In this document: one piece after another, positions 28,407 through 35,785 of the stretch
Position numbering within the stretch: position 1 is the stretch's first letter
Layout: every line of letters starts with the position of its first letter
DNA from: Koleobacter methoxysyntrophicus
GTDB lineage: Bacteria; Bacillota; Thermosediminibacteria; Koleobacterales; Koleobacteraceae
DNA length: 64,000 nt
Reading direction: 5' to 3'
Assembly: GCF_017301615.1 (NCBI RefSeq)
Contig: NZ_CP059066.1
Coordinates: 1,843,001-1,907,000, forward strand
Program-made: the position numbers and the translations under genes
The notes under the pieces: model-generated
Told to the model about the DNA's origin: nothing
Seen by the model: only the letters and a program-made list of their open reading frames with translations
Databases searched by the model: none

Positions 28407-29570
28407 GTGAAAAAGATAAAAAACCTTACCCTGTTAATAATGTTAATTACCGTTTTTACTATAACATCGTGCACCCCGGAAAAAACGGAAATGGAGGGGT
28501 CAGTGCCTCTGCACGAGGGAAAAACAGCTGAAACAAAAAGGCTTTTATACCGGGAGGAACTGCTGCTGGGTTTTGTTATGAGGGAGATGATGTCACCTTA
28601 TGGCGGTATATATACGAATTATGATAAGGACGGGGTGTTTGAATACGGTGTCAGAGGTTGGGAAGTGCTCTCCGAATCTGTAGGTTTAATGATGTATTAT
28701 GCTGTGATTAGAGAAAATAAAGAGGTGTTCGATGCACAGTACAGGTTCCTTACTGAAAGGATGATGACAAAAGAGGGGTTTATTCCCTGGAAGGTTAATG
28801 AAGATGGGACACCGACTTCTTCAAGCAGTGCGGCGATTGATGATATCAGAATAGCGTATTCCCTCATTAAAGCACATCAATTGTGGAAAGACAGCAGGTA
28901 TCTGCAAACTGCCAAAAAAATTGCTTACAATTTAGTAAAATATGGAGTATATAAAAACTATTTGGTCGATTTTTATGACTGGGAATTTGGAACAAAGGGA
29001 AGTAGTGTTAAGCTTTCATGTATAGATATTGTAGGATTAAAGGCCCTTGCCTCGTACCAACCGGGTTTGCTGAGGGTAGCGGATACGGGTTTGGATCTGC
29101 TGAGAAAATCACTTTATTCTCCGCAGTATCCGTTTCGCAGGATACTGTATGACATTGAAAAAAAGACCTTTAAGAACGAATCTGCAGTAAACATGATCGA
29201 TACATTATATGTTTCAATCCACTTATCGGAAGCCGGAATAAAACAAAGGAAGATGCTGGATTGGATGAGGAAGGAAATAGGTGAAAGGGGTAAAATATAC
29301 GGGCGGTACCATCCGAGCAAAGGGGAGCCGGCAGTAAATTTCGAATCTGCGGCAGTTTATGCTTTAGGGGTGCAGCTTTCAATAAAAGAAGGGGATAGGG
29401 AACTGGCAGACATCCTCATGGAAAGGCTCTTAACCCTTCAGGATACGCGTGAAAACGCTCCGACCTATGGTGGTTTTGTTGACCCGTTCGAGGGTGACGG
29501 CCATTCCTTTGATAATCTGCAGGCCCTTATTGCTATGGCTTTACTGCATAATAGAGAGGGGAAGCGGTGA
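28407..29570 (+). CDS. GH8-like glycosidase lipoprotein of exopolysaccharide operon
   Basis: A 387-aa exported lipoprotein; the signal ends in a lipobox (ITSC with Cys at about 22). The mature part is an (alpha/alpha)6 barrel like GH8. VLSESVGLMMYYAVI near residue 95 holds the expected acid Glu, and AAIDDIRIAYSLIKAHQLW near 150 corresponds to the GH8 DADLDIA-type base helix. BcsZ of cellulose operons and chitosanases belong to GH8. Starting at GTG 28407, it is the first gene of a five-gene cluster and overlaps the next by one base. Its likely job is to trim or release the polymer at the cell surface. Confidence 0.72.
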   Translation: MKKIKNLTLLIMLITVFTITSCTPEKTEMEGSVPLHEGKTAETKRLLYREELLLGFVMREMMSPYGGIYTNYDKDGVFEYGVRGWEVLSESVGLMMYYAVIRENKEVFDAQYRFLTERMMTKEGFIPWKVNEDGTPTSSSSAAIDDIRIAYSLIKAHQLWKDSRYLQTAKKIAYNLVKYGVYKNYLVDFYDWEFGTKGSSVKLSCIDIVGLKALASYQPGLLRVADTGLDLLRKSLYSPQYPFRRILYDIEKKTFKNESAVNMIDTLYVSIHLSEAGIKQRKMLDWMRKEIGERGKIYGRYHPSKGEPAVNFESAAVYALGVQLSIKEGDRELADILMERLLTLQDTRENAPTYGGFVDPFEGDGHSFDNLQALIAMALLHNREGKR

Positions 29571-30424
29571 TGAAAAGTACTAAAAGACAAATAGACGGAG
29601 GGATAATATTAATCCTTATAATCTTTGCTGTTTTAGTTACTTTCATATTTATTGAATACCAGCAGTTGCCAATTGAAATATATTTCCTTTTTGCTCTGAA
29701 TACCTTATTGATTGTTTTTGCGTATTCTTTAGGCCTTGTAGCCGGGCTTATAGGGAGCATGGCCGCAGTTTTTTGCTACGGTACCTATTTAGTATACGGT
29801 GCAGTTGTAAAGGGGCTGATGATGGAAGTAAATTATCAGCAGGTCATGTGGCTGTTCCTTTTCCCTTTGAGTTCATACATTTCCGGCAGGCTTTCTTTAG
29901 CAATAAAGGAAACAATAGAAAAATCAGAGAAGTATATAAAAGACATGGAAGAACTTGTGCTTTTAGACAAGGAAACCGGTTTTAGCAATTCAAAGAAGTT
30001 TTACCTTGACCTTTCTGAGGAGATAAGCAAATCTAAGAGATACGGGACGCCCCTCAGCATAATGCTTATTAAACTGCAGTATTTTGATGAGCTAAGGTCA
30101 ATTTATGGAAATGAGGTATGTAGTAATGCCGTTATCAACATAAGCAGAAAGATAACGGAGCTTTCAAGGGATATCGATAAAAAAGCGAGACTTGAGGCGG
30201 ATAAATTCGCACTTATACTGTCAAATACCGATGAGAAAGGGGCACTGGTCCTTAAAGAAAGATTGGTGAAATTCTTAGAGAATTTAGAAATAAGCGATGA
30301 GGAGGATAGAAGAAAGCTGAATTTAAGTTTTAAAATTGGGATTGCACAGTTGGAAGATAAGGAAGAGGATGCTATTGCCTTTAAAGAAAGAGCCGAAAGG
30401 GAATTGGAGTATGATGTAAGATGA
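29570..30424 (+). CDS. PelD-like membrane protein with degenerate GGDEF and intact I-site
   Basis: A 284-aa protein with about four membrane helices (residues 10-110), a short coiled coil and a C-terminal GGDEF-fold domain (about 125-284). The active-site motif is EADKF instead of GGDEF, so cyclase activity is unlikely. Five residues before it stands RDID, the RxxD inhibitory site that binds c-di-GMP, at the canonical spacing. This combination is what makes PelD a c-di-GMP receptor in Pel operons, though I see no GAF domain here. Neighbours overlap at both ends (TGATG and ATGA), so it is stoichiometrically tied to the polysaccharide genes. I infer a post-translational activator. Confidence 0.78.
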   Translation: MKSTKRQIDGGIILILIIFAVLVTFIFIEYQQLPIEIYFLFALNTLLIVFAYSLGLVAGLIGSMAAVFCYGTYLVYGAVVKGLMMEVNYQQVMWLFLFPLSSYISGRLSLAIKETIEKSEKYIKDMEELVLLDKETGFSNSKKFYLDLSEEISKSKRYGTPLSIMLIKLQYFDELRSIYGNEVCSNAVINISRKITELSRDIDKKARLEADKFALILSNTDEKGALVLKERLVKFLENLEISDEEDRRKLNLSFKIGIAQLEDKEEDAIAFKERAERELEYDVR

Positions 30425-31986
30425 AAAGAACAGCCTTTCTAATGTTTTTATTTATCACTATAATAATGGCTATATTAACGGGTTCGAGCTTTGCCGTCAC
30501 TTACGGCGAAACCCGAAAACGGGTGCTGGTGGTATACGATAACCCTAATTTACTAAACAGGGATTATTCCGGGCTTGCTAACGATTTTTCCGTAATACTC
30601 TCGGAACAGCTGGGCCATTTCAATACAGAAGTAGAAGTAGTAATGGAAAATGAATACAAAGAGGGAATGCTGGAAGGCTACCAGTATATATTTTATCTGT
30701 CTTTGAGAGAAAAATATTCCGTTAACCAAGTGCTTCTGCAGGATATTGCCAATACTGCCAGGACAGTGATCTGGTATGGAGGAGGAATAGAGGAGCTTTT
30801 AAATGCCAATAAAAATATCCCTTTAAAATTCCGCGGCAGGTCAAAGACCTATCATCTTGTTGAGTATAATAAAGAAACTTTTAACTTGGGTCAAAATGCA
30901 GGAATAAACCTGCTGGTAGAGCCTTTAAGTGAAGAAGTGATTACCTACGGTAGGGTCAGCGACGGCAAAGGGGTTTACCCATTAATAGCTAACTGGAAGA
31001 ATTATTGGTTCATGTCAGGGCTGGATACTTCTGGAGTAAAGTACCTTGTATTTAGTGATGTGCTGCATGAAATTTTCGGGGAATACCACAGCGAATACAG
31101 GAAGGTATATCTGAGAATAGAGGATGTCAGCCCTCTTAGATCGCCGAAAAACCTTATGGAAATAGCCGATTACCTCTACAGTAAAAAAATACCTTTTATT
31201 ATTGCACTGATTCCGGCTTATATCAACCCCGAGACCGGTGTCGAAGTATCTATTACAGACAAACCGGAGGTCGTTAAGGCTGTTGGATATATGGTAGAAC
31301 GGGGTGGAACCGTAGTACTGCACGGCTACACCCATCAGCACTACAAAGAAGAGACAGGGGAAGGGTTTGAATTTTGGGATGCCTTTGAAGACAGGCCCCT
31401 TAATGTAAACTATGCTGATTATGTTAGGGAAAGGGTTTTAAAAGGCATAGAGATTTGCCGCGAAAACGGCCTGTACCCCCTGGCTTTTGAACCGCCCCAT
31501 TATGCCATGGCCCAGGATGGCTACAGGGAACTGAAGAAATATTTCTCTACGGTGATCGGTCAACTGCAGACTACTGACAGGAGATTTATCACTGCGTCGC
31601 TGCCGTACGAGATAAGAAATACTAAACGCTTTAACCGATTTCTGCCGGAATCCCTTGGATATGTGGCTGAAGACGGTAGTTTCGGTGTGAATGAGATCTT
31701 AAAAAATGCGGGGAAAATGCTTTTAGTAAGGGATGCCGTTACCGGGGTTTTCTTTCATTCTTTTATGGATAAGGCATATCTGAAACAGATTGTGGAAGGG
31801 CTTGAATCTATGGGATATGTCTTTGCGGATTTAGAGAAAGAAGACAATTGGGTAAAGATAGGGGATTACAATATAAGGAGCACCGCCAAAGGTGATATAA
31901 TATATGAGGGCCCTTTATTGAAAAAGGAAAAAATAAAATCAGGGATTAAAGAGGAGGAAAAAAATCCGCATTTCACAGAAGTATAG
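30421..31986 (+). CDS. DUF2334 polysaccharide deacetylase-like exported protein
   Basis: A 521-aa protein with a signal peptide (to about residue 27), an N-terminal domain of unknown fold (about 30-215) and a DUF2334 domain (about 220-490). DUF2334 is related to NodB-type polysaccharide deacetylases; YLRIEDVSPL carries the metal/catalytic Asp and VVLHGYTHQHY the metal histidines. In this operon it probably removes acetyl groups from the exported polymer. It overlaps the GGDEF-like gene by 4 nt. The C-terminus ends abruptly in a Lys/Glu tail beside an A7 run. A one-base shift would add a membrane anchor (see next entry). Confidence 0.8.
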   Translation: MKRTAFLMFLFITIIMAILTGSSFAVTYGETRKRVLVVYDNPNLLNRDYSGLANDFSVILSEQLGHFNTEVEVVMENEYKEGMLEGYQYIFYLSLREKYSVNQVLLQDIANTARTVIWYGGGIEELLNANKNIPLKFRGRSKTYHLVEYNKETFNLGQNAGINLLVEPLSEEVITYGRVSDGKGVYPLIANWKNYWFMSGLDTSGVKYLVFSDVLHEIFGEYHSEYRKVYLRIEDVSPLRSPKNLMEIADYLYSKKIPFIIALIPAYINPETGVEVSITDKPEVVKAVGYMVERGGTVVLHGYTHQHYKEETGEGFEFWDAFEDRPLNVNYADYVRERVLKGIEICRENGLYPLAFEPPHYAMAQDGYRELKKYFSTVIGQLQTTDRRFITASLPYEIRNTKRFNRFLPESLGYVAEDGSFGVNEILKNAGKMLLVRDAVTGVFFHSFMDKAYLKQIVEGLESMGYVFADLEKEDNWVKIGDYNIRSTAKGDIIYEGPLLKKEKIKSGIKEEEKNPHFTEV

Positions 31987-32105
31987 AAATTATCGCCACA
32001 TTTTTAGCTGTTTTTGTAGGCGTTAATATCTTGAGGTTTATCATCATATTTTTCAGGGTTAAAAAACGGCAGAAAGAAATCTTGTTCAAAGAGAGGGAAT
32101 TGTAA
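31950..32105 (+). CDS. Frame-shifted C-terminal membrane anchor of the DUF2334 protein, or small membrane protein
   Basis: This frame is open from 31950 to TAA 32103, abutting the GT2 start ATG 32106. It has no ATG, GTG or TTG. It encodes a hydrophobic helix (IIATFLAVFVGVNILRFIII) followed by a basic tail (FFRVKKRQKEILFKEREL), a textbook stop-transfer anchor. Joining the upstream DUF2334 frame requires a -1 shift in the run A7 at 31958-31964, equal to one missing A. AGGAGG sits directly upstream of the run. Either the assembly lost an A, or ribosomal/transcriptional slippage makes two forms (free and anchored). Not an independent gene in my view. Confidence 0.6.
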   Translation, partial: RGGKKSAFHRSIEIIATFLAVFVGVNILRFIIIFFRVKKRQKEILFKEREL

Positions 32106-33410
32106 ATGGGCCTTACATCGATGGACTTTTTGTTCTTATATGCATTAATCTCCATATGGATTATGTTGTTGTACCACATCTTCCTGGCTTTCAGCGGCTA
32201 TCGTTACCATGAAGAGGTTTACAGGGACCCTGGAGCTGTACTTTCAGCCATTAAGGAATACCCTTTTGTAACTATACTAGTTCCTGCCCATAATGAAGAA
32301 AAGGTTATAGGGCGGACGGTTAAGGCTGTAATGAACATGGATTACCCCCAGGATAAATTTGAGCTTATTGTGATAAATGACTGTTCTTCAGATAGGACGG
32401 GAGAAATACTCCAGGAGCTGCAGGAAGATTACAATAATCTGAAGGTAATTACAGTTTTACCTCCCGAAGGCGGAAGGGGGAAGGCCGCTGCCCTGAATAG
32501 AGGATTGAGAGAAGCCAAAGGAGAATATATAGCAGTATATGATGCCGATAATACCCCTGAAAGAATGGCCTTGAGGTATCTTGTGGCTGCTATAGTTCAG
32601 GAACCTCAGTTAGCCAGTGTTGTGGGCAAATTTAGAACCAGGAATAAGGATAGAAATATTCTTACCCGGTTTATAAACATAGAGACCCTCGGCTTTCAGT
32701 GGATTTCTCAGGCAGGAAGGTGGAAGCTTTTCAACATTTCTACCATCCCGGGGACAAATTATATTATAAGAAAAAGTATTTTGGACAGATTGGGGGGATG
32801 GAATGAAAAGGCCATTACAGAAGATACGGAACTGAGCATAAGGGTTTATGAAATGGGCTACAGGGAAGATACAGAGTTTAGTATGGAGCTATACGGCTTG
32901 GGTTACAAAATAAAATTTTTCCCTCTTGCGGTTACATGGGAACAGGAACCGGAAACCTGGAAGGTATGGCTTAAACAGAGGACTAGGTGGGTAAGGGGAA
33001 ACATATATGTCATCGGGGAATATTTATTTAAGCTGCTTTCTATAAAAAGGAAGATTATTGCCCTTGACATTCTGTACTTTTTTTCTATATATTTCCTGTT
33101 TCTTTCTTCTGTATTGATTTCTGATATAATATTCATTTCCGAGATCCTTGGTATATCCAATTTAACACTGCAGGGCCCCTTTTTCGTGTTGTGGGTGCTT
33201 GCGTACATATTATTCGTAATAGAAATGGCAATAGCAGTTAATCTTGAGAAAGGCGAAGGGAATTTAAAAAACATACTGCTGATAGCCCTTATGTATTTTA
33301 CATACTGCCAGATGTGGATATTCCTTACTTTGAGAAGCTTCTATTTATCCTTCAAGGATAGGTTGATGGGTATAAAAACCGTAAAATGGTATAAGACCGA
33401 AAGATTTTAA
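32106..33410 (+). CDS. Processive GT2 glycosyltransferase (cellulose/PNAG synthase-like), no PilZ domain
   Basis: A 434-aa inner-membrane enzyme with helices at about residues 5-28 and three or four after 310. The cytosolic GT-A domain has VINDCSSDRTGE (first Asp), YDADNTPER (DxD), AITEDTEL (TED) and QRTRW, all hallmarks of processive synthases such as BcsA and PgaC. There is no C-terminal PilZ domain, so c-di-GMP sensing must be by another protein. The TED segment is duplicated in tandem in frame (residues about 239-253 and 254-268). ATG 32106 abuts the upstream frame. It should polymerise and export a beta-linked polymer whose sugar is unknown. Confidence 0.88.
   Translation: MGLTSMDFLFLYALISIWIMLLYHIFLAFSGYRYHEEVYRDPGAVLSAIKEYPFVTILVPAHNEEKVIGRTVKAVMNMDYPQDKFELIVINDCSSDRTGEILQELQEDYNNLKVITVLPPEGGRGKAAALNRGLREAKGEYIAVYDADNTPERMALRYLVAAIVQEPQLASVVGKFRTRNKDRNILTRFINIETLGFQWISQAGRWKLFNISTIPGTNYIIRKSILDRLGGWNEKAITEDTELSIRVYEMGYREDTEFSMELYGLGYKIKFFPLAVTWEQEPETWKVWLKQRTRWVRGNIYVIGEYLFKLLSIKRKIIALDILYFFSIYFLFLSSVLISDIIFISEILGISNLTLQGPFFVLWVLAYILFVIEMAIAVNLEKGEGNLKNILLIALMYFTYCQMWIFLTLRSFYLSFKDRLMGIKTVKWYKTERF
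32820..32909 (+). repeat. In-frame 45-bp tandem duplication in the GT2 catalytic domain
   Basis: Codons at 32820-32864 read EDTELSIRVYEMGYR and those at 32865-32909 read EDTEFSMELYGLGYK: the same 15-residue unit twice with no spacer. The DNA has diverged, so the duplication is old and tolerated. Confidence 0.8.
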
Positions 33411-33430
33411 AGGGACTGCGGGGGTAAAGA

Positions 33431-35785
33431 ATGATAAGGAGAATCAAAAGAGATGGAATTATGACATTGGTTTTAGTGGTATTCCTTTCAAATTACCTAA
33501 TGGTATCGGCTGTAAAGGCAGCTGAGATATATACCAACCAGGTGGGGAGATTCAACTATTACAGCAATGCTGTGAGGCTGAAGGAGGATTTGGAGGGCAG
33601 GGGTTTTAAGGTTTATATGTCAGAGGGTCCTCCTTATGTGGTAACGGTTGGAAGAAGTTTGACCTATTCAGAAGCACTGCGGGTTAGGGAGAGGTTGAAG
33701 GGGCTTAATATCGATTGTTTCATAGTAAAAATCGACGAGGAAGGGAAAATAACCATTATTGAAGAATCGGATATAAAAGCACTTAATATCTTTCCGCTTT
33801 TAAATGACAGCATCTTACAGGGGGTGCACGGGAGTCAGACCTTATTTTTCTATGTTAATGAAAACTGGGAGCCGGAAGGTAGCAGCTATATTGATTTGTA
33901 TTTTTCCCATTCACTGGTTTCCACAAATCACAAGTCAACCCTCACAGTTTTTATAAATGATAGGCCTGTCAGCACTTTTGAACTTATAAACGAAAAAGCT
34001 GAGAACAGGGCAGTGAGGGTATATGTGCCGAAAGAGGTTGTAGAGAAAGGCTTCAATGCCCTTACACTTCGTCTTTATAAAAGGGTATCTGATGACCCTT
34101 GTGAAGATGCTTACAATCCCGGCAATTGGTTTACTTTAAAAAAAGAAACTATGATCCATTTAGAATACAGAGAAATAATGGATAGACCTATTTTAAGTAA
34201 CTATCCTTATCCTTACTTTAAAATAGGTAGGGAAGACCCTGTAGATGCTATTATAGTGATACCTAAGAATTTCAATCAACGGCACTTGAGTGCTGCAGCA
34301 TACTTGGCCGCTGGTTTTGGTAAATATGAGCCCTATAAAAATATTAGAGTTAAGGTAGTAACAGAGCCTGAAATTAAAGGATATTTAAATGACAGCAATT
34401 TAATCTTTATAGGCAGTGATGAGGAATTTGACAACATAGATGGCTTACCATCAACGCAGGAAGAGGAAGGAGCAGGTGTGCTGGAAGAATTTATTTCTCC
34501 ATGGAACCCCAGCAAAATGGTTTTGAGGATTGCGGGAAAAGGGGAGTATATTCAGGAGGCTTCTAAGGCTCTTTTCTACCCAAATGTGGTCAATCAGATG
34601 AAAAGGCCCCGTCAGGTGATTAAAAATTTAGAACTGCTGCTGGAGAAAGCAGACCCTTTTCTAGAAAAAGTAACTTTGTCTGATATAGGTTATGATGATA
34701 TAATTGTTAGAGGAAAACATCAGCAGGCGGCAGCTTTTAATTATAGTCTGCCTACACAGGTAGAGCTTAAGGAAGGAGCAGGTATAACCCTTAACCTTAG
34801 ATATTCTCAAGCCCTTCAATTTATTCAGGCATCTGTAACTGTTGAAGTAAACAATATACCCCTCGGCAGCAGAAGACTGACCTATGAAGGAGCAGAAGGG
34901 GAAGAGGTCTTCTTCAAATTCCCGCCGGAACTCCTTCGGGAGAAGAATTTCGGTATAAGAGTCTTGTTTAATCTAGATTTACGGGGGATTGACTGCACTC
35001 AAAGGTATGAGGAACATGCATGGGCAGTTATTGGCAGAAACAGCTTTTTGTATTTACCCCATGAAGAAGGCGACAGGAAAAACCTGAAAAACTATCACTA
35101 TATTTTCTCAAAAAACGGCAGGATTGAGGATACAGTAACTGTAATTCCGGATAACCCAAGACTAGGACACATAGAAACGGCCTTAAATATATTTGCACAT
35201 ATGGGACACTATTTAAAGGATTTAGGGGATATAGGCCTGGTAAAGGCAGGAGATTTAGCGGATGACCAAAAGGATAAAAATATGATACTTATCGGCACTC
35301 CGAGGGAAAATTTTTATATCAAAACAATAAACCAGCATCTGCCGGTTAAATTTGATGAAAACCGTGGGTGCTTTATTCCCAACAATGATTTCCCTTTTTT
35401 AGAGGAACTAGGAAACGAAGTCGGTATAGTTCAATTGATAGACTCCCCGTGGAGCAGCGGGAAAAAAGTGATGGTAGTTACCGGTGCAGATTATTTTGCA
35501 CTAAAAAATGCAGAAATAATGCTGACAAGCCTTAATATTGCAAATACCCTCTCAGGAGTAGTATGTATGATGGACAATGCAGGGGAAGTATATAGTTTTG
35601 AATCCGTGGAAAAGGCTGATACTATACAAAAAAACAAAGAGGATAAATCCAGTAAGCTGTTTTGGTTTCAAACGCTTCGTGAACTTCTCAGTCAGAGAAA
35701 CGGTAAAATACTTGCAGTTATTCTAGGGCTTATTATTGCTACAATGTTCATTCTATTCTATGTGATCAAGAAAAACTACCGGTGA
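33431..35785 (+). CDS. BcsB-like synthase subunit with N-terminal SPOR domain
   Basis: A 784-aa protein, last gene of the operon. A signal peptide (to about residue 33) is followed by a SPOR domain (about 35-105; IYTNQVGRFNYYSNAVRLKE, then YVVTVGRSLTYSEALRVRER), which in other proteins binds denuded peptidoglycan glycans. The rest is BcsB-like: two carbohydrate-binding-like and flavodoxin-like repeats (LQGVHGSQTLFFYV, SYIDLYFSHSLV, then FNYSLPTQVELKEGAG) and one C-terminal membrane helix (about 757-778). BcsB guides the nascent polymer outside the membrane and is needed for synthase activity. A SPOR fusion would tether the complex to the cell wall. A hairpin without T-run follows (35774-35801). 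Confidence 0.82.
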   Translation: MIRRIKRDGIMTLVLVVFLSNYLMVSAVKAAEIYTNQVGRFNYYSNAVRLKEDLEGRGFKVYMSEGPPYVVTVGRSLTYSEALRVRERLKGLNIDCFIVKIDEEGKITIIEESDIKALNIFPLLNDSILQGVHGSQTLFFYVNENWEPEGSSYIDLYFSHSLVSTNHKSTLTVFINDRPVSTFELINEKAENRAVRVYVPKEVVEKGFNALTLRLYKRVSDDPCEDAYNPGNWFTLKKETMIHLEYREIMDRPILSNYPYPYFKIGREDPVDAIIVIPKNFNQRHLSAAAYLAAGFGKYEPYKNIRVKVVTEPEIKGYLNDSNLIFIGSDEEFDNIDGLPSTQEEEGAGVLEEFISPWNPSKMVLRIAGKGEYIQEASKALFYPNVVNQMKRPRQVIKNLELLLEKADPFLEKVTLSDIGYDDIIVRGKHQQAAAFNYSLPTQVELKEGAGITLNLRYSQALQFIQASVTVEVNNIPLGSRRLTYEGAEGEEVFFKFPPELLREKNFGIRVLFNLDLRGIDCTQRYEEHAWAVIGRNSFLYLPHEEGDRKNLKNYHYIFSKNGRIEDTVTVIPDNPRLGHIETALNIFAHMGHYLKDLGDIGLVKAGDLADDQKDKNMILIGTPRENFYIKTINQHLPVKFDENRGCFIPNNDFPFLEELGNEVGIVQLIDSPWSSGKKVMVVTGADYFALKNAEIMLTSLNIANTLSGVVCMMDNAGEVYSFESVEKADTIQKNKEDKSSKLFWFQTLRELLSQRNGKILAVILGLIIATMFILFYVIKKNYR

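What the first reader, a model, noticed from the sequence alone, without database searches (positions are those of the whole stretch)
31958..31964. A7 run splits the DUF2334 deacetylase from a C-terminal membrane anchor
Seen: the gene stops 22 nt after seven A residues; the -1 frame carries a transmembrane helix and basic tail that ends exactly at the GT2 start and has no start codon. AGGAGG sits directly before the run. Either one A is missing from the assembly, or slippage yields two proteins, one secreted and one anchored at the synthase.
Basis: partly seen in the sequence, partly recalled or inferred. Interest (0 to 1): 0.7.

Follow-up and report, generated by a model that had tools for sequence, protein, structure and literature searches.

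The report
One-base break in an anchored deacetylase
A gene for a membrane-anchored sugar-polymer deacetylase is one base short in a run of A's in this assembly, which cuts off its membrane anchor; relatives keep the anchor in one piece, so this looks like an ordinary sequencing slip or a recent mutation rather than a switch that makes two proteins.

Summary
A7 lies at 31958-31964, AGGAGG at 31952-31957, the DUF2334 frame stops at TAG 31984-31986, and the -1 frame encodes a transmembrane helix and basic tail, ending in TAA directly before the GT2 ATG at 32106. The tail is homologous to the C-terminus of the 74%-identical orthologue. Of 25 other genomes with a DUF2334 match, 17 have the GT2 next door, and all 17 carry anchor and basic tail in the same open frame. 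The window is the only exception: a singleton frame break in a gene that is otherwise one piece.
Nothing supports programmed slippage. The site is not conserved. A_AAA_AAT is not among the efficient E. coli motifs in the passages I read. The SD-like hexamer sits too close. No unusual downstream fold exists. Runs of A7 or longer are commonplace in open genes here (295 in 854 kb).
The run is one A short of the orthologues' frame: either an assembly undercall or a recent real deletion. I cannot separate these without reads; I lean slightly to undercall. Truncation would leave a deacetylase secreted or held only by its N-terminal signal. Interest is low.

The parts
30421..31986 (+). DUF2334 gene as assembled (521 aa): signal-peptide-like N-terminus, DUF2334 domain, linker; stops at TAG 31984-31986
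   Evidence: ORF; PF10096 E 1.5e-53 at residues 229-460; signal peptide read by eye from the sequence
31952..31957 (+). AGGAGG; lies in the Glu-Glu codons of the linker (GAG GAG); SD-like by sequence only
31958..31964 (+). A7 run, one base short of the frame that all GT2-linked orthologues keep
   Evidence: orthologues
31962..32105 (+). -1-frame tail: transmembrane helix, basic segment, TAA; homologous to the orthologues' C-terminus
32106..33410 (+). GT2 polysaccharide synthase (PgaC/BcsA-like), starts right after the tail's stop
   Evidence: 49-87% identical to the downstream gene in 15 of the 17 GT2-linked orthologue loci over about 430 residues; only about 240 residues aligned in G047 and G150
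33431..35785 (+). BcsB-like protein with an N-terminal SPOR domain, same operon
   Evidence: PF03170 E 5.6e-61, PF05036 E 9.2e-8
29567..30424 (+). GGDEF-domain protein upstream, same operon
   Evidence: PF00990 E 1.8e-21
28407..29570 (+). GH8-like lipoprotein upstream, same operon
   Evidence: PF01270 E 1.3e-12; lipoprotein signal read by eye

Best explanation
The native gene is one open frame: signal peptide, extracytoplasmic DUF2334 (polysaccharide-deacetylase-like) domain, variable linker, C-terminal transmembrane anchor and short basic cytoplasmic tail, made next to the GT2/BcsB-like synthase so that the enzyme sits on the membrane beside it. In the assembly one A is missing from the homopolymer in the linker, which throws the anchor out of frame. 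The missing base is most likely a residual homopolymer undercall in the assembly and is not a regulatory device. Shown: fused architecture in 17 of 17 GT2-linked orthologues, tail homology, singleton status. Inferred: the enzymatic role, the topology, and the choice of undercall over real deletion.
For: All 17 GT2-linked orthologues keep the anchor in frame. The tail is homologous to theirs and shows protein-type conservation with no internal stop. The nearest relative has the same residue spacing once the tail is read in its own frame (alignment read by eye). The four operon neighbours (28407-30424 and 32106-35785) are open frames. The two other one-base frame breaks found in the sample are also runs one base short: murQ G4 in L026 and the Maf/MptE-like gene G6 in L037. 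Long-read errors are mainly homopolymer indels, deletions in runs of 2-8 (PMC12007338, passages). BLASTp-validated singleton frameshifts are expected to be sequencing errors rather than indels (PMC3711429, passages).
Against: Frame breaks are rare in this assembly: 2 one-base breaks by codon-usage scan in 854 kb apart from this one. By homology, of 53 comparable ORFs of G002, including this one, this gene is the only frame-cut one I found. So the assembly is generally good. PMC3711429 also notes that a frameshift near a gene's 3' end is more likely a real indel than an error, which is the case here. The sequencing platform is unknown and no reads are held.
Confidence: 0.52

Rival explanations
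1. Real, recent one-base deletion in this strain. The DUF2334 protein loses its C-terminal anchor and is either secreted or held only by its uncleaved N-terminal signal; the gene is a mild loss-of-function allele, perhaps arisen in culture.
For: Homopolymers mutate by slippage; a break near the 3' end spares the catalytic domain and fits a tolerated indel (PMC3711429 passage). Few other frame breaks in the assembly, so a high error rate cannot be assumed. A transporter-phosphoribosyltransferase fusion in L069 (read by eye) suggests that real gene damage may occur in this genome.
Against: The tail carries no second lesion and the operon is otherwise open; 17 of 17 GT2-linked orthologues keep the anchor. 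All this is equally expected of an error or of a very young mutation.
Confidence: 0.38
2. A7 is real and functional: ribosomal or transcriptional slippage makes a secreted short form and a minority anchored form.
For: The zero frame is phased as the heptamer A_AAA_AAT (31959-31965), with SD-like AGGAGG just upstream, and the -1 product restores the orthologues' C-terminus. Of 121 in-frame A_AAA_AAT in sampled genes, only 6 have an SD-like word within 20 nt upstream, this one included.
Against: No orthologue has a frame break (0 of 17). The most efficient A-type E. coli motifs end in A or G, and A_AAA_AAU is not in the selected list of 18 (PMC4066793 passages). SD-like words were sought at 6-17 nt before the motif's second base as the proven range, whereas AGGAGG ends 2 nt before it. 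Downstream fold z -0.75, 45 of 200 shuffles as good. 295 runs of A7 or longer lie well inside open genes of 150 aa or more. Bacterial transcript slippage is cited for A9 or long runs (PMC5009743 passages).
Confidence: 0.07
3. The tail is a separate small membrane protein translated by reinitiation at a non-standard start overlapping the TAG (ATA at 31983) or just after it (ATT at 31989).
For: ATA overlaps the stop as ATAG and both codons are in the tail frame.
Against: No ATG/GTG/TTG before the helix, no SD-like sequence at a usual distance, and no orthologue with a separate tail gene (0 of 17).
Confidence: 0.01

Closest known systems
GT2-linked, C-terminally anchored DUF2334 (PF10096) proteins of related Firmicutes genomes, e.g. 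the one on DFNM01000155.1 (Firmicutes bacterium UBA3567)
   Same: Same domain, same GT2 neighbour, homologous anchor and basic tail; 74% identity over 516 residues
   Different: There the anchor is in the same frame; in the window it is one base out of frame
Programmed -1 frameshifting of the dnaX / IS3 type
   Same: A-rich heptamer in the right phase with an SD-like word upstream
   Different: No conservation of the site, poor spacing, weak motif, no downstream structure
Singleton frameshifts / homopolymer gene-fragmenting errors in long-read assemblies (PMC12007338, PMC3711429)
   Same: One base short in a homopolymer, BLAST-validated, not shared by any relative found
   Different: Reads not available; a genuine indel is not excluded

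Membership tests
Programmed -1 ribosomal frameshift site | In-frame X_XXZ_ZZN slippery heptamer | tested here: met
   A_AAA_AAT at 31959-31965; but 121 such in-frame motifs occur in sampled genes
Programmed -1 ribosomal frameshift site | Shift site conserved among orthologues | tested here: not met
   0 of 17 GT2-linked orthologues have a frame break
Programmed -1 ribosomal frameshift site | SD-like stimulator 6-17 nt before the motif's second base | tested here: inconclusive
   AGGAGG ends 2 nt before it; a GAGG at 31951-31954 ends 5 nt before it, at the edge of the range depending on how distance is counted
Programmed -1 ribosomal frameshift site | Stimulatory RNA structure downstream (optional in bacteria) | tested here: not met
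   80 nt downstream: -12.4 kcal/mol, z -0.75
Programmed -1 ribosomal frameshift site | Measured trans-frame product | not testable with these tools
   needs a reporter or proteomics
Transcriptional slippage site | Long A/T run (about 9 or more in the cited bacterial cases) | tested here: not met
   A7; PMC5009743 passages speak of A9 and long poly(A)
DUF2334 (PF10096) | Match over the curated cut-off | tested here: met
   181.8 bits against 26
GT2-linked C-terminally anchored DUF2334 proteins | C-terminal transmembrane helix and basic tail in the same frame | tested here: not met
   Present as sequence but in the -1 frame of the assembly
Phase-variable gene | Run length varies between cells or strains | not testable with these tools
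   one genome of the species held, no reads

The most novel reading that the evidence does not exclude
The A7 run is real and slippage at it (ribosomal or transcriptional) or run-length variation among cells sets the ratio of an unanchored to a membrane-anchored polysaccharide deacetylase beside its synthase, a lineage-specific switch that relatives lack.
Probability: 0.06. Interest if true: 0.5.

Novelty: not a real feature. Interest (0 to 1): 0.12.

Why it matters
Mostly as a correction: the gene should be annotated as a single anchored DUF2334 protein with a frameshift flag, and the anchor should be counted as part of this synthase-linked family. The side result, that every GT2-linked DUF2334 gene found here carries a C-terminal anchor (17 of 17 genomes) whereas 4 of 8 genomes without a detected GT2 neighbour do not, suggests that membrane tethering goes with the synthase partnership.

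Tried and rejected
Conserved recoding: rejected, no orthologue shares the break. Downstream stimulatory fold: none above chance. Separate promoter or terminator at the junction: two promoter-like matches against 2.1 expected, none placed to serve the tail, no terminator-like site. A genome-wide pattern search for AGGAGG plus A7 plus TGA asked for a different stop codon from the one at this site and did not return it; it is uninformative. A stop-to-stop scan gave one false candidate and did not find the known breaks, because I excluded cases with any start codon nearby; I dropped it.

Frame-break census: codon-usage HMM on window plus 20 stretches and on 20 more. In one search I treated rows with the first gene's stop within about 16 nt as ordinary neighbouring genes without checking each; one search filtered them in the script. 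Most remaining rows were neighbouring or overlapping genes on reading the translations; two one-base breaks (murQ, Maf/MptE-like), one phosphotransferase remnant joined to murQ and one transporter/phosphoribosyltransferase fusion remained. The HMM did not flag the site of this finding (tail log-odds -1.7 in its own frame, -27.1 in another), so it misses short tails and the counts are lower bounds. The murQ break is confirmed by profile continuity (profile positions 13-67, then 68-279). For the Maf-like gene the downstream frame had no significant Pfam match, so that case rests on codon usage and on reading the junction.

Guess that the genome is Koleobacter: taken from memory and the neighbours' names, looked up for a sequencing method; nothing useful was found and the identity is not shown. 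Literature: DUF2334 plus glycosyltransferase, 0 papers; DUF2334 alone, 1 paper, listing only. Papers listed other than PMC12007338 were not opened.

Full report
What is there. The DUF2334 gene runs 30421-31986. Near its 3' end the zero frame reads GAG GAG GAA AAA AAT CCG CAT TTC ACA GAA GTA TAG; A7 is 31958-31964 and AGGAGG is 31952-31957. The -1 frame from the run encodes 47 residues with a hydrophobic helix and a basic segment, and its TAA abuts the ATG of the GT2 gene at 32106. The neighbours are a GH8-like lipoprotein, a GGDEF-domain protein, the GT2 synthase and a BcsB-like protein, all open frames in the same direction.

The tail belongs to the gene. The closest orthologue (G002, the same stretch as DFNM01000155.1, Firmicutes bacterium UBA3567; 74% identity) is one open frame of 555 codons with a helix and basic tail ending at the GT2 gene. 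BLASTP aligns the window's tail to that C-terminus (E 9e-6) and to that of L006 (E 3e-5). Codon comparison with L005 shows protein-type constraint in the tail frame only, with saturated synonymous sites and only 46 codons, so it dates nothing precisely.

Survey. Three overlapping searches covered 61, 398 and 26 genomes; each count includes the window's own genome. Twenty-five other genomes had a match. In 17 the window's GT2 has a relative directly downstream (16, with G150 added). All 17 carry a C-terminal hydrophobic helix and basic tail in the same frame (hydropathy of at least 2.27 over 19 residues in 16; G150 read by eye). Two weak points: G047 is a distant match (21% identity) and G311 has only a 384-codon frame. 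The other eight genomes have no GT2 hit in the DNA held (too little DNA to look in three of them: G201, G225, G272): four have a helix (G074, G097, G112, G339) and four do not (G060, G201, G225, G272). The window's genome is the only GT2-linked case with the anchor out of frame. Where the next start was found by script, it lies -20 to +16 nt from the DUF2334 stop in the relatives and 119 nt away here.

Slippage reading. In its favour, the heptamer phase is right and few of the 121 in-frame A_AAA_AAT motifs in sampled genes have an SD-like word within 20 nt (6 of 121). Against it: the site is not conserved; the E. coli survey (PMC4066793, passages only) finds the best A-type motifs ending in A or G, does not list A_AAA_AAU among its 18 selected motifs (I saw no measured value for it), and uses SD-like words 6-17 nt before the motif's second base, whereas AGGAGG ends 2 nt before it; the downstream RNA is not unusually folded. 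AGGAGG is also simply part of the Glu codons of an acidic-basic linker. The review PMC5009743 (passages) places bacterial transcript slippage at runs of nine or at long runs. In 622 sampled open frames of 150 aa or more there are 328 A7, 76 A8 and 4 A9 runs, 295 of them (A7 or longer) at least 30 codons from either end, so A7 as such is ordinary here.

Error or real deletion. In 854 kb of this genome (window plus 40 stretches) a codon-usage HMM left two other one-base breaks, murQ (confirmed by profile continuity) and a Maf/MptE-like gene (one search supports only the upstream part), both in runs one base short of the continuing frame. Among 53 ORFs of G002 comparable with the sample, only this gene proved cut by a frame break; the other two early-ending hits are an inserted PAS-type segment (read by eye) and a hit at a stretch end. 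The assembly is thus good but may keep a few homopolymer undercalls. PMC12007338 (passages) and PMC3711429 (passages) favour error for singleton homopolymer breaks in general; the latter favours real indels for breaks near 3' ends. I put undercall at 0.52, real deletion at 0.38 and functional slippage at about 0.07; these weights are judgement, not computed.

Function. By domain and neighbourhood (inference), the protein is a polysaccharide-deacetylase-like enzyme of a GT2/BcsB-type exopolysaccharide system. The conserved anchor would keep it at the synthase. If A7 is real, the enzyme would be secreted, or held only by its N-terminal signal if that is not cleaved.

Noticed in passing
L026:7300-8130 (-): murQ split by a one-base frame break at a G4 run (profile positions 13-67, then 68-279 in the next frame), running into a phosphotransferase IIA-like remnant (named by eye).
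   Followed up: partly
L037:16171 (-): A Maf/MptE-like gene changes frame at a G6 run; Maf genes are phase-variable by G tracts in Campylobacter (recalled), so real variation is possible.
   Followed up: partly
L069:15362 (-): A transporter-like frame runs into the middle of a phosphoribosyltransferase-like frame, as if an internal deletion had fused two genes (families named by eye, no search run).
   Followed up: no
29567-30424: The operon's GGDEF-domain protein has EADKF where GGDEF is expected (read by eye), suggesting a degenerate cyclase that may sense rather than make c-di-GMP.
   Followed up: no
33431-35785: The BcsB-like protein carries an N-terminal SPOR domain (PF05036, E 9.2e-8), an unusual pairing to my knowledge.
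   Followed up: no
L011 (orthologue in G028): The HGYTH motif of the DUF2334 domain is replaced by KGYEA in the alignment, so that copy may be catalytically dead.
   Followed up: no
L047 (G257), DUF2334 linker: An in-frame G8 run lies in the linker region just before the anchor of another orthologue.
   Followed up: no
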